Of a DNA stretch of 64,000 nt, positions 8,035 to 56,477 are shown piece after piece. Position numbers and translations under genes: made by a program. The notes under the pieces are model-generated. The model was not told the DNA's origin. It saw only the letters and a list, made by a program, of their open reading frames with translations, and did not search any database. Source of the DNA: Actinomycetota bacterium (GTDB lineage: Bacteria; Actinomycetota; Actinomycetes; Mycobacteriales; Mycobacteriaceae); contig JAFDWN010000030.1 of NCBI GenBank assembly GCA_018268465.1, positions 148,626 through 212,625 on the forward strand, written 5' to 3'. The first letter of the stretch is position 1, and every line of letters begins with the position of its first letter.

Positions 8035-8324
8035 GTCTCAACTCCCATTCCCCTTGGGTGAGTCACGCAGTAGCGCGGACCCCACGCCCGTCGGTTTGCC
8101 GACTGCGAGGTGGCTCCGCCCTTCGGGTAGCCGAGGCGGACCGAGGTCAAACACGGGACCGGTTCCGCGACACCGCCGACGGTGGGGCCATGTACGTCAG
8201 GAGCGGCATGCAGATAATCGACAGCGCATGCCCAGGCAGAGATGATTGACACCTGCGCCAATTTGCTGCGAAGCTGCCTGGACCGTGCGCCAGACGTGCT
8301 GCGGACGTTGAGCGGAAGTGCGTG

Positions 8325-10133
8325 ATGAGGCGACGCCAGTTTCTCGCCGGAGCAGTCGCCGTGCCGGTTGTCCTCAGCGGCTGCTCGCACCCCGCGAAAC
8401 CAGCCGAGAATTCGGGTGCTGGACCGATGTCGCGGGTCCGCCCCGGACAGCCGGGGTGGCCGTCGCCACAAGACTGGAAATCGTTGTCGGATGGCCTCGA
8501 CGGACGGCTTATCGAGGTGACGTCGCCGCTGTCGGCGTGTCCCGCCGACCCTGACGGATGCGCTCAGGTCTTTCGCGACCTGAAGAACCCGTACTACATC
8601 GGCGACACCGTCGCACTCACTCAGACGTCGGGCTGGCTCGACGCATGGTCGTCGACACCCAGCGTGTACGCGGTTGCCGCCGCCAGCACAGCGGATATCG
8701 TCCGCGCCGTCGACTTCGCCCGTGAACACCGTCTGCGGCTGGTGATTCGAGGTGGCGCGCACAGTTATCTCGGTACATCCAATGCTCCTGACTCGCTTCT
8801 TATTTGGACACGTCACCTCAATACCGTGGCGGTGCACGATTCGTTCACGCCGCAAGGTTGCACCGGCACGGTCGCGGCACAGCCCGCTGTCACTGTGGGG
8901 TCCGGCGCGATGTGGATCGATGTCTACGATGCGGTGACGACCAAAGCCGGCAGGTACGCCCAGGGCGGCGGATGCGCGACGGTCGGGGTGTCGGGATTCC
9001 TGCTCGGCGGCGGCTTCGGCAGCTTCTCGAAGAACTACGGCCTCGGCGCGGCCGGTTTGCTGGAGGCCGAAGTCGTCACCGCCGACGGCCAGGTCCGAAT
9101 CGCCAACGCGTGCACCAACCCCGACCTGTTCTGGGCCCTCAAGGGCGGTGGCGGCGGGACGTTCGGCGTGGTTACCACGCTGACGCTGCGCACCCTCGAA
9201 CTACCCCCCTACTTCGGTTCCGTCACCGGAACGGTGAAGGCACACTCCGACGACGCCTATCACCGGCTGATCACCACGATCCTCGCCTTCTACCAGCAGC
9301 GGTTATTCAACCCGCACTGGGGCGAACAGATCCAATTCAACGCCGACAACACCGTCGAGTTCAAGATGTCCGTCCAGGGACTCGACAGCGCCCAAGCCCG
9401 GGCCGCCTGGCAGCCCTTCCTCGACACCATCGCCGCCGCCCACGACTTCACCACCCCGGAGCCGGTGTCCATCCATCTCATCGCAGCCCAACATTATTGG
9501 GATGCAACCTATCTGCAGGCGAATCACCCGCAGGCAATCATCCACGACGACCGGCCCGGCAGCCCTCCCGGCAACATCTACTGGACCGGAAACCGCGAGG
9601 AGGCCGGGATCTTCCTCTACGGCTACCAGTCGACGTGGCTGCCCGCTGCGTTGCTGACCGCGCCTCGACAGCGGGCGCTGGCCGACGCCCTGTTCGCCGC
9701 GACTCGCCACCACCGGACCACTCTGCACCTCAACAAGGGCCTCGCCGGTGCACCCGATGCAGCTCGAGTCGAGATCGCCGACACTGCTATCAATCCCGCT
9801 GTCAGCGATGCGTTCGCCTTGGCGATCGTCGCCGATGGTCAGCAGCCTGCCTTTCCCGATATCGCGAGCCATACACCTGACGTGACCGCCGGCCGAGCAG
9901 TGGCGGCGAAGATCACCCGGGCGATGGCCGAGCTACGCAAGGTGGCGCCGGACGCGGGCTCCTATCTCAACGAGACCGACTTCTTCGAAACCAACTGGCA
10001 GCAGTCTTTCTGGGGACCCAACTACCAGCGGCTGGCCGGCGTCAAGAACCGGTACGACCCCGACGGGCTGTTCTTCGTTCACCACGGAGTGGGTAGCGAC
10101 CGGTGGAGTTCTGACGGCTTCACCCACCGGTAG
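8325..10133 (+). CDS. Tat-exported lipoprotein FAD oxidase, berberine-bridge-enzyme type
   Basis: A 602-residue protein. The N-terminus is a twin-arginine lipoprotein signal: MRRRQFLAGAVAVPVVLSGC, with the lipobox Cys at residue 20. The FAD_binding_4 domain contains RGGAHSYLG (His146) and GGGCATVGVSG (Cys217). These correspond to the His and Cys that attach FAD at two points in bicovalent BBE-like enzymes. The C-terminus (YLNETDF...WGPNYQRLAGVKNRYDP) is the BBE domain. Expected role: membrane-anchored oxidation of an alcohol, sugar or similar substrate outside the cytoplasm, with H2O2 production. The start is at ATG 8325, with GTG 8322 as alternative. It lies two genes away from a second Tat lipoprotein redox enzyme. 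Confidence 0.92.
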   Translation: MRRRQFLAGAVAVPVVLSGCSHPAKPAENSGAGPMSRVRPGQPGWPSPQDWKSLSDGLDGRLIEVTSPLSACPADPDGCAQVFRDLKNPYYIGDTVALTQTSGWLDAWSSTPSVYAVAAASTADIVRAVDFAREHRLRLVIRGGAHSYLGTSNAPDSLLIWTRHLNTVAVHDSFTPQGCTGTVAAQPAVTVGSGAMWIDVYDAVTTKAGRYAQGGGCATVGVSGFLLGGGFGSFSKNYGLGAAGLLEAEVVTADGQVRIANACTNPDLFWALKGGGGGTFGVVTTLTLRTLELPPYFGSVTGTVKAHSDDAYHRLITTILAFYQQRLFNPHWGEQIQFNADNTVEFKMSVQGLDSAQARAAWQPFLDTIAAAHDFTTPEPVSIHLIAAQHYWDATYLQANHPQAIIHDDRPGSPPGNIYWTGNREEAGIFLYGYQSTWLPAALLTAPRQRALADALFAATRHHRTTLHLNKGLAGAPDAARVEIADTAINPAVSDAFALAIVADGQQPAFPDIASHTPDVTAGRAVAAKITRAMAELRKVAPDAGSYLNETDFFETNWQQSFWGPNYQRLAGVKNRYDPDGLFFVHHGVGSDRWSSDGFTHR

Positions 10134-10193: not shown

Positions 10194-13100
10194 GTGGGAG
10201 TCAGCCGGGAAGGTGACGGTGGACGGACGGCCACAGAGCTGATCTGCCGTACCTGCGGCGCGCATGCCAGTTCGACGGGCAGGTTCTGCAGCGAGTGCGG
10301 TGCTCGGCACGTCCAGGCGACCCGCACAGCCGCCGAGTACAAGCAGGTGACGGTGCTGTTCGCCGATTTGGTGCGGTCCATGGAGCTTGCGGCGGTCCTC
10401 GACATGGAGCGGCTGCGCGAGGTCATCACCGAGCTGGTGGAACGGTGCGCGAGGGTAGCGCAGCGCTACGGCGGGACCGTGGAGTACACCGGCGACGGGG
10501 TGATGGTGTTGTTCGGCGCGCCGGTCGCAGTGGAGGATCACGCGTTCGACGCATGCCATGCCGCCCTGGCGATTCAGCAGGAGGCTGGCGGGCTGGCTAA
10601 CGAGGTTCGCCGCCGCGACGGCGTGATGCTGCAGGTGCGGATCGGCCTGAACTCCGGTCGGGTGATCGCCGGTGAGGTCGGTGCGGGGTCGTCCAGATAC
10701 GCCGCGACGGGAGAGACGGTCGGGTTTGCGCACCGGATGGAATCGGCCGCTCCGCCGGGCGGGGTGATGGTGTCCGAGTCGACCGCGCGACTCGTCGAGC
10801 ACAGGGTGGTTCTGGCTGAACCGGAATGGGTGCACATCAAGGGCACCGAAGAACCCGTGCGCGCTCAACGGCTGCTGTCGATCGTCCCGCGTGATGACGT
10901 GGCCGGACGCACCGAGGCGAGCCTCGTCGGCCGGCGCTGGGAAATGGCGGCTCTCGACGCACTCATGGAGCGCGCCATCGGCCGGCGCGGGGGTGTGGTG
11001 AATCTCGTGGGTGCACCGGGCATCGGCAAGAGCCGGTTGGCCCGGGAGTCCGCGGCGCTGGCAGCCGGTCGCGGAGCGGACGTGTTTTGGGCATTCTGCG
11101 AATCGCACGCTCGCGACATCCCGTTCTCCGCCGTCACCAGTCTGCTGCGGGCAGGTAATGAAGTGGCCGACCTCAGCGGCCACGCCGCCCGTGTGAGAAT
11201 GCGCCAGCAGATCCCGGACGCCGACCCGCAAGATCTGCTCCTGCTCGATGACCTCCTCGGTATCTTCGACCCGGATGCGCTTCTCCCCCAATTGGATCCG
11301 GACGATCGTCGGCGCCGGTTGACCGCACTGATCACCATGCGCGCGCTGGCCCGAAGTACACCGGCGCTGTTCATCATCGAGGATGCGCACTGGGTTGATC
11401 CGGTCAGCGAGTCGATGCTGTCCGACTTGATGCCAGTGATCCCGCGGACGTCATCGATGGTGCTGATCACCTCCCGACCCGAGTATGGGGGCGCGTTGCT
11501 GCGGGTCGCTGGCGCGCATACGATAACCATTGGCCCACTGGGTGATTCGGACATCACCGCGCTGCTCGGCGAGCTGCTCGGGTCGGATCCCTCGATCGGC
11601 GAGTTGGCGGCGGTCATCACCGAGCGGGCGGCCGGCAACCCGTTCTTCGCCGAGGAGATGGTGCGCGAGTTGGTCCAGCGCGGCGTGCTGGCGGGTGGAC
11701 GCGGCGGCTATACGTGTCGCGCCGATGCCGCCGAGGTGAGCGTTCCTGCCACGGTGGCCGCTGCCATCGGCGCGCGCATCGACCGGTTGAGCGTCCCGGC
11801 ACGGCGGACGTTGACCGCGGCGTCGGTGATCGGCGCCCGTTTCGAGGTGGAACTGTTGTCCGCGTTGGGTATCGACGCCGCATTCGACGAGCTGCTCGGC
11901 GCGGAGCTGATCGATCAGGTGCGGGCGAGCCCCAGCGCCGAGTACGGGTTCCGGCATCCGCTCATCCGCGCGGTGGCCTACGAATCGCAGCTGAAATCCG
12001 ATCGCGCCGAATGGCACCGACGCCTTGCCGCGGCCATCGAAAAGCGCACGCCGGCGTCGACGGACGACAACGCGGCGCTGATCGCGGAACATCTGCAGTC
12101 CGGTGGCGACCTGCGCGCGGCGTACGGGTGGCATATGCGTGCCGGCGCGTGGTCGGCGAACCGCGATCTCAATGCCGCACGGCTGAGCTGGGAGCGCGCT
12201 CGCGAGATCGCCGACCAGCTGCCCGCCCCGGATTTTCCCCACCCAGCTTCGCCCGCCCCGGACCTCGACGTCCTGTCGATGCGCATCGCCCCCCGCACCA
12301 TGCTGTGTGCCACCGACTGGCAAGCCCGTGAGGTTCGGGAAAGCCGGGCCCGCTTCGCAGAGCTGCGCGAGTTGTGCACGGCAACCGGGGACAAGGCCTC
12401 GCTGGCAATCGCCATGACCGCGTTGGCCACCGAACTGCTGTACGCCGGGCGCGCGGTCGAGGCGGCGGACATGTCATCCCAACAAGTGGCGCTGTTCGAG
12501 TCGATGGACGATCCCACCTCGGCCATGGGGTTGGCTGCCATAAGCTTCGTCAGCTGGAACGGTGTCCTCGACTTCGGTGCAGTGTTGCGGTGGTCGCAGA
12601 GGATCACCGACCTGGCCGCCGGCGACCCCGCCAAAGGCGCCGGTTACGGTGTCGGATCACCGTTGGCCGTCGCGTTGGCATGGCGTGGGACTGCCCGGTG
12701 GTGCCTGGGCCGTCCCGGATGGCGCCAGGACCTCGACGACGCGGTCGCGATTGCCCGATGCTGCAATGCGGAAACCTTCTCCGGTGCCGTCGCCTGGACC
12801 TACGGTTTCGCAGTGCAGTACGGGGTGCTTCGGGCCGACGACTCCCTGATCAGCACCTGCGAGGACGCGGTGCAGACTGCCCGCAATGCCAGCAGCGATC
12901 GGGCATTGGGCTTGGCCGGGTACACGTTGGCAGTCGGACTGCTGAATCAGGACGACGCGGGCGACCGCCAGCGCGGGCTGGAACTGATGATGCAGACCCG
13001 CGATATCTGGCTGCGCAAGCGGGGTCTGTTCCTCATCCCGGTTACCGACGTGTGGGCCGCCCGGGAACAGGCCAGGCGCGGCGACCGCGACATGGCCATC

Positions 13101-13439
13101 CGCGCAGTGCGCCAAGCCCTTACAGAACTGCGCACGGGATACCCCTTCTATACCGTCTGGGCTACCGGCGTTCTGGTGGAGGCGCTGGTGGATCGCGCCG
13201 CCGACGGCGATCTGGCCGAAGCTCAAGAGGCGACCGACCAGTTGGCGAACGTGTCGGCGGACGTCAGTTCGGCGATGCTCGAGATCACGCTTCTGCGACT
13301 GCGCACGCTCATATCCCGCGCCGGCGGCGACAAGGCCGGTCACCGGCACCTGTTGAGTCGGTACCGCGCCATGGCTGAATCGCTTGGCTTCGAAGGACAT
13401 ATCGCGTGGGCCGCGGCGATGGTCGACCGGCTTCTGTAG
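10194..13439 (+). CDS. Class III cyclase-like domain fused to AAA ATPase and TPR-like region (signalling protein)
   Basis: A 1081-residue multidomain protein. Residues 18-36 form a zinc ribbon (Cys18, Cys21, Cys32, Cys35). Residues about 48-225 are a class III nucleotide cyclase domain with both metal-binding Asp motifs (LFADLV; TGDGVMVLF). The usual transition-state Asn is absent: TGETVGFAHRMES stands where D.VN.AAR.E is expected. An ATPase module follows, with Walker A GAPGIGKSRL from residue 273 and Walker B LFIIEDAHW. The C-terminal 500 residues are helical repeats. Unlike several mycobacterial relatives it has no C-terminal LuxR HTH. It is likely a sensor/STAND-type regulator; cyclase activity is doubtful. 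Confidence 0.9.
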   Translation: MGVSREGDGGRTATELICRTCGAHASSTGRFCSECGARHVQATRTAAEYKQVTVLFADLVRSMELAAVLDMERLREVITELVERCARVAQRYGGTVEYTGDGVMVLFGAPVAVEDHAFDACHAALAIQQEAGGLANEVRRRDGVMLQVRIGLNSGRVIAGEVGAGSSRYAATGETVGFAHRMESAAPPGGVMVSESTARLVEHRVVLAEPEWVHIKGTEEPVRAQRLLSIVPRDDVAGRTEASLVGRRWEMAALDALMERAIGRRGGVVNLVGAPGIGKSRLARESAALAAGRGADVFWAFCESHARDIPFSAVTSLLRAGNEVADLSGHAARVRMRQQIPDADPQDLLLLDDLLGIFDPDALLPQLDPDDRRRRLTALITMRALARSTPALFIIEDAHWVDPVSESMLSDLMPVIPRTSSMVLITSRPEYGGALLRVAGAHTITIGPLGDSDITALLGELLGSDPSIGELAAVITERAAGNPFFAEEMVRELVQRGVLAGGRGGYTCRADAAEVSVPATVAAAIGARIDRLSVPARRTLTAASVIGARFEVELLSALGIDAAFDELLGAELIDQVRASPSAEYGFRHPLIRAVAYESQLKSDRAEWHRRLAAAIEKRTPASTDDNAALIAEHLQSGGDLRAAYGWHMRAGAWSANRDLNAARLSWERAREIADQLPAPDFPHPASPAPDLDVLSMRIAPRTMLCATDWQAREVRESRARFAELRELCTATGDKASLAIAMTALATELLYAGRAVEAADMSSQQVALFESMDDPTSAMGLAAISFVSWNGVLDFGAVLRWSQRITDLAAGDPAKGAGYGVGSPLAVALAWRGTARWCLGRPGWRQDLDDAVAIARCCNAETFSGAVAWTYGFAVQYGVLRADDSLISTCEDAVQTARNASSDRALGLAGYTLAVGLLNQDDAGDRQRGLELMMQTRDIWLRKRGLFLIPVTDVWAAREQARRGDRDMAIRAVRQALTELRTGYPFYTVWATGVLVEALVDRAADGDLAEAQEATDQLANVSADVSSAMLEITLLRLRTLISRAGGDKAGHRHLLSRYRAMAESLGFEGHIAWAAAMVDRLL

Positions 13440-13466: not shown

Positions 13467-15026
13467 CTACGTACGGCGCTCGAACCCGATGTCATCGCCG
13501 ATCACGGTGGATGGGCCAATCGGCAACGCCTCTGGATCATCGCCACCCACCGGGATGAATGCCAGCCGATCCCGCCAGACCTTACGCAGCAGATCCTCGA
13601 ACGCCATGATCGTGAGTTGCTCACCGGGGCAACGCCGATAGCCGAATCCAAAGGGTGCGAAGCCCGCGTAATCACATACCGGCAGTGGCCGGTCGTCGAC
13701 GACGCCGAACACCGTTCCGAAGGCGCTGTTCGCAAGGGCCGCCTTGCGCCCGTCCTTCACGTCGAATGTGGTGAGATCGAAAGGACAGTTGGCCAAACCC
13801 ATCTGACGAATCTGCGCCTCGTCGATATCCGCACTGGTGGGCACTCGCCCGTATCGGGACGGATCGAACTCGTCCGGGTTGGTCCATTGGACCCGGTCGT
13901 GGCTGGTCGCGGTGTGCGGGCTCACCATGTAGGTGTGTCGTTCGAACGGTGCCGGGGTGGTCTCCTCCAGCGCCGAGATGCTGCCGCCGTTGGGTGAAAT
14001 AGTCCGGAACAGTTCCATCACGAACCGTTCCAGCGGGGGGAATCCGCCATCCGCCGCGGTGTCGAAGTCACCGCTCATCGTCGTGGCGAATACCTCCCGC
14101 GCCTGCGGATTCCCGCCTGCCTCTTTGAGTGTCGCCATGATGTTGTAGAGGCTGTTGCCCCATTGGCTGAACGCCACGAAGTTATGGAAGCACTCGAACA
14201 CGACATCCTTGTGGTTGAAGTGCTCACTCTCTTCGCCGTTTTTGAGCCAGTACCAAGCGAACGTCCGCTCCGGGCTGGGCGTCCTGCCGGAGCTGATGTC
14301 GGCGAGTCGGTCGTCGATCCACGACTTGAGAAACGCCAGGTTCTTCCGCACCGTCAGATAATTGTCGTACACCACCTGCTGGGTGGGATCTCGGTAAGCC
14401 AGCACGGCGTTGAAGCTTGCACCGATTTGGCGTACCTGCTCGGGTAGCTGGTCACCCCTGACACCGAGATGCAGATCCCAATAGAGATCCCAGAACGTAT
14501 CAAGATAGATACGCATCAACGGTTTACCAGCGTTGGCGGGGGCCAGCAACGCATTGAAGTACCCAACGACCTTCTGCTGGTACATCTTTCGATACAAGTC
14601 GGGCGTGACAGCAGACATGTAGATGCGCTTTCGCCGATTGTCGGGCCCGCGTTTCTCCAGACCCTGAAGAAACACCGTGACCCCTTCTTCCGGATCGGGC
14701 TGCCAGCTCTCACTGAGCAACCCCCACAGGTCGTAGGGCAGCGCGTTCTCTTTGGTCAGCGGCAGGTCGATCATCGGTAGCACCGGCCGCTCACCCGCCG
14801 TGACCCGGTTCATGACATTCGCGACGATGACGTTGTCGACATACGCGGTGTCGAACTTCGCGAGATACTGCTCTCGAAGTTTGGCCACCTCCTCCGGTAA
14901 TCCCATGGCCCCCGACGTGCTTTGTCCCTCTTGCGCCGCAGGCGAGCACGCGATCAACGTCTGTGCGGACACCGCTGCCACCGCACCCGCCCCACCGGCG
15001 AGAAAGTGCCGTCGCTTCACTGTCAT
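13467..15026 (-). CDS. Cytochrome P450-like haem protein with Tat lipoprotein signal
   Basis: 519 residues from ATG 15026, which has a Shine-Dalgarno AAGGGA 6 nt upstream. The N-terminus is a twin-arginine lipoprotein signal (VKRRHFLAGGAGAV, lipobox LIAC, Cys27). The body carries P450 signatures: the K-helix ExxR as ELFR (residues 338-341), EFDPSRYG, and the haem-thiolate loop FGFGYRRCPGEQL with Cys466. The I-helix region (FECFHNFVAFSQWGNSLYN) lacks the usual (A/G)GxxT oxygen-activation motif. That pattern is known in P450s that rearrange peroxides, such as CYP74, without needing electron transfer. No cognate ferredoxin is adjacent. A P450 sent through Tat would be unusual. Confidence 0.85.
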   Translation of the reverse strand: MTVKRRHFLAGGAGAVAAVSAQTLIACSPAAQEGQSTSGAMGLPEEVAKLREQYLAKFDTAYVDNVIVANVMNRVTAGERPVLPMIDLPLTKENALPYDLWGLLSESWQPDPEEGVTVFLQGLEKRGPDNRRKRIYMSAVTPDLYRKMYQQKVVGYFNALLAPANAGKPLMRIYLDTFWDLYWDLHLGVRGDQLPEQVRQIGASFNAVLAYRDPTQQVVYDNYLTVRKNLAFLKSWIDDRLADISSGRTPSPERTFAWYWLKNGEESEHFNHKDVVFECFHNFVAFSQWGNSLYNIMATLKEAGGNPQAREVFATTMSGDFDTAADGGFPPLERFVMELFRTISPNGGSISALEETTPAPFERHTYMVSPHTATSHDRVQWTNPDEFDPSRYGRVPTSADIDEAQIRQMGLANCPFDLTTFDVKDGRKAALANSAFGTVFGVVDDRPLPVCDYAGFAPFGFGYRRCPGEQLTIMAFEDLLRKVWRDRLAFIPVGGDDPEALPIGPSTVIGDDIGFERRT

Positions 15027-15064: not shown

Positions 15065-15454
15065 TCACCGCGTGTTCAGCGCGGCGGCCTTGAGTTGTTC
15101 GAATTCGGTCGGCGTGATGGCGCCGGCATCAAGCAGATCCCTGGCACTGGCGATGTCCTGGGTCGGGGATCGGCCTGCGACCCTGCGGATGTATTCATCG
15201 GTGTGTCGCCGCACCGCTTCGGCGTCTTCGTTGGCGCGCTCGGCCATACCCTTGCCGCGGGCGACGAGGTAGACCAGTGCGGTCAGATAGGGCAGCACCA
15301 CCAGCAGAACCACCCAAATCGCCTTGACAACACCCGATGTCGACCGATCCCGCCAGAACAGGTCGGTCAAGATGTTGAACAGGATGATCAGGTAAGCGAC
15401 GAAGGCGAAGATCAGGATCGTCGACCACAGGAAACTCCAGAACGTTCCCCACAT
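15065..15454 (-). CDS. Membrane protein with PLDc_N-like and SHOCT domains
   Basis: 129 residues. Two hydrophobic helices come first (STILIFAFVAYLIILFNILT; AIWVVLLVVLPYLTALVYLV), separated by the WRD linker typical of the phospholipase-D-nuclease N-terminal (PLDc_N) region. The tail (IASARDLLDAGAITPTEFEQ) is a SHOCT motif, a short domain often found at the ends of actinobacterial membrane proteins. Its stop lies 38 nt before the Tat-P450 start on the same strand, so the two are probably cotranscribed. Function unknown; a role in envelope stress or protein assembly is possible for this type. Confidence 0.88.
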   Translation of the reverse strand: MWGTFWSFLWSTILIFAFVAYLIILFNILTDLFWRDRSTSGVVKAIWVVLLVVLPYLTALVYLVARGKGMAERANEDAEAVRRHTDEYIRRVAGRSPTQDIASARDLLDAGAITPTEFEQLKAAALNTR

Positions 15455-20687: not shown

Positions 20688-20837
20688 CCCGTCCGCCGGG
20701 GGCGCACGTCGGATTCGTCGTCCCAGGGCAATCACCAAGTCGGAAATGCGGGAACTACGCCGCTGCGGCTGGCCGGGTGAGTGCGCACGCCAGCACCATG
20801 CGTGCATCCAGCACTTGACTCGACAGGGGGAGAAATC

Positions 20838-21938
20838 ATGCCCAGTGCCTTTGATCCGATCAGGATCGCCGATCGGACCTTGAAGAACCGAATCGCCATG
20901 GCCGCACTGACACGACGCCGCGCGTACGGACCGGAACTCTCCGCAACCCAGCTGATGGCCCGGTACTACCGACAACGGGCGTCGGCCGGGCTGATCATCA
21001 GCGAAGCCCTTCAACCCAACCGCGTCGGACAGGGCTACACCTGCACGCCCGGCATTCACACCCAGACCCAGGTCGACTCCTGGAAGCCGGTCACCAGCGG
21101 GGTCCACGACGCGGGCGGCACCATCTTCGCCCAATTGCAGCACGCGGGACGCAACAGCCACCCGGAGCTGCTCGGCGAGGGCCGGTACCCGGTGGGCCCG
21201 TCGGCCGTTGCCGCCGAGGGAATGGTCCGAGTCAACATTGGCGAACCCGCCGTCCGCAAACCGTACCCGACACCGAAAGCGTTGACTCTCAGTGAAATAC
21301 ACGACACCATCGCCGACTTCGCCGACGCCGCCGAGAACTGCATCAGCGCAGGCTTCGACGGGGTGGAACTGCACGGCGCCTACGGCTATCTCATCCAGCA
21401 GTTCCTGTCCTCCAACGCCAACCTGCGATGCGACGGGTACGGCACCAGCGTGGCGGGCCGTATCCGCTTCCCGTTGGAACTGGTGCGCGCCGTCGCCGAC
21501 CGAATCGGGTCCGACCGGCTCGCCTTAAGGATTTCGCCGGGATGTACCGCCTTCGGGATCGAAGAAGACGACCTGGACACGGTCTACCTGGCATTGGTAT
21601 CCGAGTTGCCCAGCGATCTGGCGTTTCTCGACGTTTTCGAATTCCCCGGCCACCGCGCCCTGACCCGGGCGATTCGCCGGAAGTGGTCAGGTGTGTTGAT
21701 GCTCAACCCGCACGGCGCCGCCCAGGATTTCCCGGCCGGTCCGCATCAACTCGCCGTCGTCGAGGACGGCCTGGCCGACATCGTCGCTTTCGGCACCCAC
21801 TACATCGCCAATCCCGATCTGGCCGAACGGCTCAAGACCGGCGCCGCGCTGGCGCCTGCCGACACGTCCACCTACTACCTGGGCGACGAGCAGGGATACA
21901 CCGACTATCCGGCCCTCGCCAGCGTCGAGGTGGGCTGA
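20838..21938 (+). CDS. Old Yellow Enzyme-family ene-reductase (NADH:flavin oxidoreductase)
   Basis: 366 residues from ATG 20838, preceded by AGGGGGAG. The FMN TIM barrel of the OYE family is complete. It contains RIAMAALTRRRA near the N-terminus, FAQLQHAGRNSHPE (flavin-binding Gln and substrate-loop region), GFDGVELHGAYGYLIQQFLS, then IADFADAA..., and ends with VAFGTHYIANPDLAERL, the C-terminal phosphate site. Such enzymes reduce activated C=C bonds, nitro groups or nitrate esters with NAD(P)H. In this subfamily (NemA-like) the physiological substrate is often unknown. It may be controlled by the Lrp-like regulator upstream. Confidence 0.93.
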   Translation: MPSAFDPIRIADRTLKNRIAMAALTRRRAYGPELSATQLMARYYRQRASAGLIISEALQPNRVGQGYTCTPGIHTQTQVDSWKPVTSGVHDAGGTIFAQLQHAGRNSHPELLGEGRYPVGPSAVAAEGMVRVNIGEPAVRKPYPTPKALTLSEIHDTIADFADAAENCISAGFDGVELHGAYGYLIQQFLSSNANLRCDGYGTSVAGRIRFPLELVRAVADRIGSDRLALRISPGCTAFGIEEDDLDTVYLALVSELPSDLAFLDVFEFPGHRALTRAIRRKWSGVLMLNPHGAAQDFPAGPHQLAVVEDGLADIVAFGTHYIANPDLAERLKTGAALAPADTSTYYLGDEQGYTDYPALASVEVG

Positions 21939-55259: not shown

Positions 55260-56477
55260 TCAGGGGGAGGGAGTGAATCCGATGGGGAGCCGGATCGGTC
55301 CGGTGTTGCCCGAGTCGGGCAGCCAGGTGGCGCCGGGCAGTTCGTGCGGGTCGTGCAGCCGGCGGGCCAGCAGCGGCAGCGCCTCACTCATGTCGGAGCG
55401 GGCGACGAAATGACCCAGGCAGTGGTGGGCACCGCCACCGAACCCGAAGTGCGGCTTGCGATCTGCGGTGATGTCGAACCCCGGTTCGAAGACTCTGGGG
55501 TCGGTACCCGCCGATTCGCTGTAGAGGTGCACGGTGGTCCCTGCTCTCAGCGGCACCCCGTCGTATTCGAAGTCCTCGAGGACCTCGCGGGTCACCCACC
55601 GCACGGTGGGGTTCACCCGCATCACTTCCTCCACGGCTTTCCCGCCGAGTTCGGGGCGCTGCGCGAGCAGGCGCCACTGATCGGGGTGTGCCATGAAGGT
55701 CTGCATGGCCAGCCCCAGCTGGTTGCGGGTGGTGTCGAAACCGCCGAAGATCAGCAGCACCATGCCGTCGCGCAGTTCGATGTCACTGAGTCGGCCGTCT
55801 TCCGGTCGCGACGCGTTCACCAGGGCGGTGACGAAATCGTCGCGGGGATTCGCGCGCCGGTCGGCGATGAGGTCGTCGCAGTATTCGTAGAGCCGCTGCA
55901 GGGCGGCCTCGATCTTGGGCAGGTCCTGACGCAACGTCACCCCCATCGCCAGCCCGACGGTCGTGGACTCGGTGGCGATGACCTTCCATTCGTCTTCCGG
56001 TATCCCGAGCATGATGGCGATGACGCGGGCCGCGTAGGGTTCGGCGAATTCGCTGACGAACTCGCAGCGGCCCGGTTCGGCGAAGTTGTCGACGAGTTCG
56101 TTGCCCAGTGCCTGGAATCGCGGGACCAGCCCGCCGATCAGTTTGGGCGAGAACGCCGGATTCATCAGGCGGCGCAGCCGGTGGTGCTCCTCGCCTTCCT
56201 TGTTGAGGATCCAGCTGGCGAACCAGTCGGCGAACGGTCCCTCGGTGACGCCGTTGTGCGCGGGCCAGGCCACGCTGCCCTGACGCAGCTTGGGATGTTT
56301 GAGCAACCGGCTGACCTGCTCGTACCGCAGGACGGCGATCCCGTACGGCGTGGTCGCGTACCAGCTGCGCTCGCGGGCGTCGTGCACTTCGGCGGAGGTG
56401 ATGGAGAAGGCCGGATCGGCCACGTCGAACGCGGGGACGTCGACCGCTGGGGCCGAACCGGGTGGGACAGACGACAT
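55260..56477 (-). CDS. Cytochrome P450 (class I; possible CYP151/PipA-MorA-like)
   Basis: 405 residues, cytoplasmic bacterial P450. I-helix LLIFGGFDTTRN with the acid/Thr pair, K-helix EEVMRVNP (ExxR), and the haem loop FGFGGGAHHCLG with Cys353. ATG 56477 has GGAGG upstream, and a good promoter (56520-56547) precedes it. The P450/3Fe-4S ferredoxin/reductase/GS-like order resembles the piperidine/pyrrolidine (pipA) and morpholine (mor) loci of mycobacteria, in which the P450 opens cyclic secondary amines. The substrate here is inferred from context only. Confidence 0.93.
   Translation of the reverse strand: MSSVPPGSAPAVDVPAFDVADPAFSITSAEVHDARERSWYATTPYGIAVLRYEQVSRLLKHPKLRQGSVAWPAHNGVTEGPFADWFASWILNKEGEEHHRLRRLMNPAFSPKLIGGLVPRFQALGNELVDNFAEPGRCEFVSEFAEPYAARVIAIMLGIPEDEWKVIATESTTVGLAMGVTLRQDLPKIEAALQRLYEYCDDLIADRRANPRDDFVTALVNASRPEDGRLSDIELRDGMVLLIFGGFDTTRNQLGLAMQTFMAHPDQWRLLAQRPELGGKAVEEVMRVNPTVRWVTREVLEDFEYDGVPLRAGTTVHLYSESAGTDPRVFEPGFDITADRKPHFGFGGGAHHCLGHFVARSDMSEALPLLARRLHDPHELPGATWLPDSGNTGPIRLPIGFTPSP

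What the first reader, a model, noticed from the sequence alone, without database searches (positions are those of the whole stretch)
13467..15026. Cytochrome P450 with a twin-arginine lipoprotein signal and no oxygen-activation Thr
ExxR (ELFR) and the haem loop FGFGYRRCPGE are clear, yet the N-terminus reads VKRRHFLAGG...LIAC. P450s are normally cytoplasmic or ER-bound, so export of a folded haem-thiolate protein through Tat would be unusual. The I-helix lacks (A/G)GxxT, as in CYP74-type enzymes that act on peroxides without redox partners. That would suit an extracytoplasmic location.
Basis: partly seen in the sequence, partly recalled or inferred. Interest (0 to 1): 0.7.

Follow-up and report, generated by a model that had tools for sequence, protein, structure and literature searches.

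The report
Exported P450-like haem enzyme in mycobacteria
An environmental mycobacterium encodes an unusual cytochrome P450 that carries the export tag for folded proteins and lacks the usual oxygen-activating motif, so it probably works outside the cytoplasm on peroxides, where bacterial P450s are not normally found.

Summary
Window 13467-15026(-) encodes a 519-residue divergent P450 (Pfam 26.4 bits, cutoff 22.8; P450 fold in two low-confidence models). Its N-terminus is a twin-arginine signal ending in a lipobox (LIAC). That is not chance: all 15 mycobacterial genes found (in 14 of 396 genus genomes) have RR and a Cys there, and three more relatives at 55-58% identity (two proteobacterial plasmids, one IMG/VR contig) have RR without the Cys. 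Two relatives (Calothrix, another actinobacterium) have no signal. The motif [AG]Gx[DE]T is absent; the near-invariant helix reads HNFVA[FL]SQWGN[ST]. Profile alignment puts Q288 in place of the Thr (posterior about 0.3); N291 is the alternative, and position 292 is Ser or Thr, so the register is open. Best reading: a Tat-exported, lipid-anchored P450 using peroxide or a substrate hydroperoxide instead of a redox partner. Five of 15 mycobacterial loci pair it with a two-component system; two plasmid copies precede an outer-membrane barrel gene. CYP74 membership was not shown. Export and activity are predictions; the listings of my open-paper searches showed no exported bacterial P450.

The parts
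13467..15026 (-). divergent cytochrome P450, 519 aa, predicted Tat lipoprotein
   Evidence: P450 fold in two low-confidence models
14949..15026 (-). predicted signal peptide, residues 1-26 (MTVKRRHFLAGGAGAVAAVSAQTLIA)
   Evidence: sequence; RR plus lipobox Cys in 15 of 15 mycobacterial genes; weak PF10518 match, 15 bits, below its cutoff of 22.7
15009..15014 (-). twin arginine R5-R6
   Evidence: Arg-Arg with differing codons across relatives
14946..14957 (-). lipobox LIAC, Cys27
   Evidence: sequence; Cys in all 15 mycobacterial copies, none in the first 40 residues of the Serratia, Paraburkholderia and L065 copies
14127..14213 (-). helix I, residues 272-300, without [AG]Gx[DE]T
14151..14168 (-). 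S287-Q288-W289-G290-N291-S292, the stretch that replaces the oxygen-activation motif
14004..14015 (-). K-helix ExxR (E338-R341, ELFR)
   Evidence: invariant in 15 of 15 rows
13854..13868 (-). PERF-like FDPSR, residues 387-391
   Evidence: alignment to ordinary P450s
13623..13652 (-). haem loop FGFGYRRCPG, ligand Cys466 at 13629-13631
15065..15454 (-). small membrane protein with PLDc_N and SHOCT segments, directly upstream, ends in a GTGA overlap with the alternative GTG start
   Evidence: PLDc_N 23.3 bits at its cutoff, SHOCT 23.1 below its cutoff of 27; same neighbour directly upstream in L067, L070, L072

Best explanation
The gene encodes a member of a small, horizontally scattered bacterial P450 family whose mycobacterial copies are folded with haem in the cytoplasm, exported through Tat, cleaved by the lipoprotein signal peptidase and anchored by Cys27 on the outer face of the cytoplasmic membrane. 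Shown by sequence and models: the P450 motifs and fold, the conserved signal, and the missing canonical acid-alcohol motif. Inferred: haem binding, export, lipidation and activity. With no NAD(P)H-dependent partner known outside the cytoplasm and none recognised among the neighbour genes that I identified, it most likely does not activate O2 by the usual electron relay. It more likely cleaves the O-O bond of H2O2 or of a lipophilic substrate hydroperoxide at the haem-thiolate, perhaps with an amide (Q288 or N291) in the distal helix, giving peroxygenation or isomerisation/lyase chemistry on a hydrophobic substrate in the envelope. My estimates: P450 fold 0.98, export 0.88, partner-free peroxide chemistry given export 0.6.
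Against: No haem, localisation or activity data. Calothrix and G297 have no signal yet keep the same helix I, so the chemistry does not require export. The signal region evolves faster than the rest (11 of 29 residues differ from G099). Neither a lipoxygenase nor a haem dioxygenase was found in the genome, but those searches rang in no control either. Models are of low confidence (pLDDT 53.7 and 61.8), worst around the haem loop; plain Foldseek TM scores are only 0.35-0.49. PF10518 is below its cutoff. The family is rare: 14 of 396 genus genomes, 2 of 397 in the order, 1 of 296 in the phylum, the window's own genome counted each time.
Confidence: 0.52

Rival explanations
1. An exported P450 that still activates O2, fed electrons by an unidentified envelope donor such as the quinone pool or a periplasmic carrier.
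For: Ser/Thr at 292 in all 16 sequences aligned and Asn291 before it could take the acid-alcohol role; an old-yellow-enzyme-type flavoprotein gene lies directly upstream of the G041 copy and about 6 kb from the window copy.
Against: No ferredoxin or P450 reductase recognised among the neighbour genes identified, although most neighbours outside the window were not put through Pfam; NAD(P)H is absent outside the cytoplasm (general knowledge); canonical motif absent.
Confidence: 0.17
2. A haem-thiolate ligand-binding or sensing lipoprotein, not an enzyme, that works with the neighbouring two-component system.
For: Kinase-like and response-regulator genes lie beside the P450 on the same strand in 5 of 15 mycobacterial loci (L067, L070, L072, L009, L071).
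Against: No such pair in the other 10 of 15 loci, the window among them (flanks of about 4 to 10 kb); ExxR, FDPSR-type motif and haem-loop Cys are kept.
Confidence: 0.14
3. A cytoplasmic P450 whose N-terminus only resembles a Tat signal.
For: Calothrix and G297 relatives carry no signal; no SignalP-type predictor was available; PF10518 below cutoff.
Against: RR, hydrophobic stretch and Cys kept in 15 of 15 mycobacterial genes with differing Arg codons, and an Ala-rich end without Cys in Serratia, Paraburkholderia and L065. Of 25 other P450 loci of this genome, 20 gave a reading frame and none shows such a signal, one chance RR.L apart; starts there were set by a length rule and some are probably wrong.
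Confidence: 0.08
4. A true bacterial member of the CYP74 clan, making aldehydes, allene oxides or epoxyalcohols from fatty-acid hydroperoxides.
For: Possible amide residue in the distal helix, as in plant AOS Asn321 and PGIS Asn287 (PMC13049297, passages seen); CYP74-like enzymes are named from proteobacteria (PMC10813956, passages seen).
Against: No CYP74 entry among 24 PDB sequences at E<=10; its helix does not read FATcFNTwGGMKI; ordinary haem loop.
Confidence: 0.07

Closest known systems
Cytochrome P450 superfamily (PF00067)
   Same: ExxR, FDPSR, FGxGxRxCxG with Cys ligand, fold in two low-confidence models
   Different: Predicted to be exported; weak Pfam score; no [AG]Gx[DE]T; long conserved insert between FDPSR and the haem loop (CPF, DGR, NSxFG)
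CYP74 clan (AOS, HPL, EAS), with PGIS (CYP8A1)
   Same: Possibly an amide in the distal helix where other P450s have Thr; clan enzymes need no redox partner (PMC10813956, passages)
   Different: Helix sequence differs from FATcFNTwGGMKI (PMC13049297, passages), no detected sequence match; plant CYP74A and CYP74B are chloroplast-associated (PMC10813956, passages)
CYP152 fatty-acid peroxygenases
   Same: Bacterial P450s that use H2O2; weak NCBIfam match of 12.8 bits at residues 373-393 only (E 0.033, cutoff 600)
   Different: Cytoplasmic and marked by an Arg-Pro pair in helix I (both recalled); that pair is absent here
Bacterial unspecific peroxygenases (PMC13394420, passages seen)
   Same: Exported in part, some as predicted lipoproteins, haem-thiolate, H2O2-driven
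   Different: Unrelated fold with PCP motif; predicted Sec signals in the clades whose passages I saw

Membership tests
Cytochrome P450 superfamily | Profile match and Cys-ligand haem loop FxxGxRxCxG | tested here: met
   26.4 bits over cutoff 22.8; FGFGYRRCPG, Cys466 invariant in 15 of 15 rows
Cytochrome P450 superfamily | P450 fold | tested here: met
Cytochrome P450 superfamily | Binds haem, CO band near 450 nm | not testable with these tools
   needs spectroscopy
Tat lipoproteins | RR motif, hydrophobic stretch, lipobox Cys | tested here: met
   15 of 15 mycobacterial genes; in G170 the signal is in another reading frame than the rest; the profile PF10518 itself is below cutoff
Tat lipoproteins | Export and lipidation | not testable with these tools
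   TatC present; no experiment
CYP74 family or clan | Over 40% identity to CYP74 (family rule quoted in PMC10813956), or clustering with the clan | tested here: inconclusive
   no CYP74 chain among 24 PDB sequences at E<=10; no CYP74 sequences were in hand for a tree
CYP74 family or clan | Helix I groove of the type FATcFNTwGGMKI with Asn over the iron | tested here: inconclusive
   sequence differs; Asn291 or Gln288 may sit there, register unresolved
CYP152 peroxygenases | NCBIfam CypC equivalog score (cutoff 600) | tested here: not met
   12.8 bits
Bacterial unspecific peroxygenases | PCP motif and UPO fold | tested here: not met
   no PCP in the 519 residues; P450 fold

The most novel reading that the evidence does not exclude
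A bacterial P450 family that natively works outside the cytoplasm: exported folded with haem by Tat, lipid-anchored in mycobacteria and soluble in the periplasm of Gram-negative bacteria, driven by peroxide or lipid hydroperoxide with a new distal helix (SQWGN[ST]), and in some lineages run by its own two-component system or paired with an outer-membrane channel for its substrate.
Probability: 0.45. Interest if true: 0.82.

Novelty: new variant of a known kind. Interest (0 to 1): 0.62.

Why it matters
P450s mostly depend on cytoplasmic NAD(P)H-fed partners, so a conserved exported P450 would show that the fold can work where those partners are absent and would be a natural H2O2- or hydroperoxide-driven, self-sufficient enzyme. 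It would give bacteria a P450 counterpart to secreted fungal and bacterial peroxygenases, and make the role of the I-helix Thr directly testable in a family that conserves another solution. The three annotated copies I saw are not recognised as P450s: two are named only by their signal and one is a hypothetical protein.

Tried and rejected
Tried without result: PDB sequence searches gave only short, weak matches, mostly to P450s. Phage records held no match; a plasmid search with the Calothrix protein at E<=10 added only two weak partial rows to the three known plasmids. A viral-contig scan with the Calothrix protein found nothing, and one with L065 found only L065 and L066 again. Searches for An_peroxidase and lipoxygenase in the genome rang in none of the 14 control genomes either, so they say nothing. 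Literature searches for exported or Tat-linked P450s listed no paper on an exported bacterial P450; they cover open-licence PMC only, and I saw listings (20 of 71, 2 of 2, 0, 10 of 54, 8 of 10 papers), not full texts. Neither CYP74 nor CYP152 entries were among the listed fold rows; that is no evidence of absence.

Considered and rejected: that the GTG at 15068 is the start (relatives have a start at the RR); that the RR is chance (15 of 15); that the window's Tat-lipoprotein-like berberine-bridge-type oxidase is a conserved H2O2 supplier (no match at E<=1e-10 in the 19 other loci); that the family is phage-borne (L065 and L066 place one copy between genes that by eye look integrase-like and phage-structural, probably a bacterial gene at an integration site, but no phage record matched).

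Left out of counts: fragments of a broken second copy in G063 (L027-L030) are not among the 15 genes. Two of the 15 (L015 = G170, L026 = G056) are frame-disrupted; they are described, not mended. The G056 gene is not in the alignments or the tree. That some L loci and G genomes are the same genome is inferred from equal contig lengths and identities.

Full report
WHAT IS THERE. The ORF on the minus strand, 13467-15026, encodes 519 residues. The genome is a mycobacterium: the 8 named loci found are Mycolicibacterium/Mycobacterium species at 69-74% identity. Codon composition is that of a coding gene, and against G099 (78%) third positions change more (239) than first (88) or second (54) in 514 aligned codons; in the signal region the figures are 18, 11 and 2 in 29 codons, with 11 residues changed. 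The preferred start is ATG 15026; a GTG at 15068 overlaps the stop of the upstream gene, and both keep the signal.

IS IT EXPORTED. The N-terminus reads K-R-R-H-F-L, a hydrophobic Ala/Gly-rich stretch, then LIAC. Among 396 genus genomes, 14 hold the gene, one of them twice: 15 genes. All 15 have RR and a Cys at the end of the hydrophobic stretch, though the three residues before it vary (two MAGC, one LGAC, one AVAC among them); in G170 the signal is in another frame than the rest, and the G056 gene is disrupted further on. Arg-Arg is encoded by different codons in different copies. Three relatives, on Serratia fonticola and Paraburkholderia ginsengisoli plasmids and on an IMG/VR contig of unknown host that groups with them (L065), have RR and an Ala-rich end without a Cys, which fits a soluble periplasmic protein; the start codon of L065 is not settled. 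Calothrix NIES-4105 (plasmid) and actinobacterium G297 have no signal. In the tree of 19 rows a branch with support 100/98 divides these two from the 17 others, with G297 flagged as a long row of unsure place and the root set at the midpoint, so export changed perhaps once. TatC is in the genome. Of 25 other P450 loci of this genome, 20 gave a reading frame; none shows such a signal, a chance RR.L in L002 apart, but starts were set by a length rule and some are probably wrong. No SignalP-type predictor was available, and PF10518 scores under its cutoff.

HELIX I. The helix reads D(V/I)(V/I)FE(C/V)FHNFVA(F/L)SQWGN(S/T). F277, E278, F280-A285 and S287-N291 are invariant in 15 of 15 aligned rows. 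The motif [AG]Gx[DE]T is absent. hhalign places the Thr of ordinary P450s at Q288 in 14 of 14 choices of master row under default settings, but these share one profile and the posterior is only about 0.3 (0.2-0.3 in global mode); without realignment 10 of 14 gave Q288 and 4 no answer. If the stretch from helix I to helix J is read by eye without gaps against L001, N291 takes the place. Either would put an amide there, as Asn321 of plant AOS and Asn287 of prostacyclin synthase (PMC13049297, passages seen); W289 would be the answer of an ungapped reading from the other end. Position 292 is Ser or Thr in the 16 sequences aligned, so an unusual N-S/T pair is not excluded.

SURROUNDINGS. Directly upstream is a small membrane protein with PLDc_N and SHOCT segments. 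In 15 mycobacterial loci compared, the same gene lies directly upstream of the P450 in four (window, L067, L070, L072); in the last three it is preceded by a kinase-like gene and a response regulator; in L009 and L071 the P450 comes first and the kinase and regulator follow; the other ten have no such pair within the DNA held. The kinase call is weak: HATPase_c 22.4 bits in L011, below cutoff, no family in L009; the regulator of L009 is clear. In Serratia and Paraburkholderia the next annotated gene is an outer-membrane barrel of PF13557; in Calothrix such a barrel is the second annotated gene downstream, after a short one on the other strand. G297 has a formate/nitrite transporter next door. 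I recognised no ferredoxin or P450 reductase beside the copies, but most neighbours outside the window were not run through Pfam.

HOW IT LIKELY WORKS. Tat exports folded, cofactor-loaded proteins (general knowledge), so haem can be inserted before export. Outside the cytoplasm there is no NAD(P)H for a usual redox chain. With the acid-alcohol motif gone, the simplest chemistry is O-O cleavage of H2O2 or of a hydrophobic hydroperoxide at the thiolate haem. The outer-membrane barrels near the Gram-negative copies suggest uptake of a hydrophobic compound; PF13557 is named for phenol degradation, but its members here are untested. I cannot choose between peroxygenation and hydroperoxide isomerisation or lysis.

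NOVELTY. The annotation calls the Serratia and Paraburkholderia copies 'twin-arginine translocation signal domain-containing protein' and Calothrix 'hypothetical protein'. Five literature searches listed no exported bacterial P450 in the rows shown. The nearest published parallel is a 2026 report of bacterial unspecific peroxygenases, some predicted lipoproteins, which are haem-thiolate but structurally unrelated to P450s (PMC13394420, passages seen). I rate this a new variant of a known kind.

Noticed in passing
window 8322-10133 (+): A berberine-bridge-type FAD oxidase (PF01565, PF08031) also begins with a Tat-lipoprotein-like N-terminus (MMRRRQFLAGAVAVPVVLSGC). Such oxidases can release H2O2 (general knowledge), a possible cosubstrate for the P450, but it was not found near the other copies.
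   Followed up: partly
window 10194-13439 (+): Large regulator with class III cyclase and AAA domains; a 46% relative lies about 5 kb from the P450 in L070.
   Followed up: partly
window 20781-21938 (+): Old-yellow-enzyme-type reductase (PF00724); another (37% over the best segment) lies directly upstream of the G041 P450 in L039.
   Followed up: partly
L065 1666-3234 and L066 432-2000: A 55% relative of the P450 lies on IMG/VR contigs between genes that by eye look integrase-like and phage-structural.
   Followed up: partly
L015 (G170), L026 (G056), L027-L030 (G063): Two mycobacterial copies are frame-disrupted and a further one is only fragments, so the gene may be decaying in some lineages, sequencing error not excluded.
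   Followed up: no
window 55368-55925 (-): A second, ordinary P450 with GGFDT in helix I and no signal in the N-terminus read (L064).
   Followed up: partly
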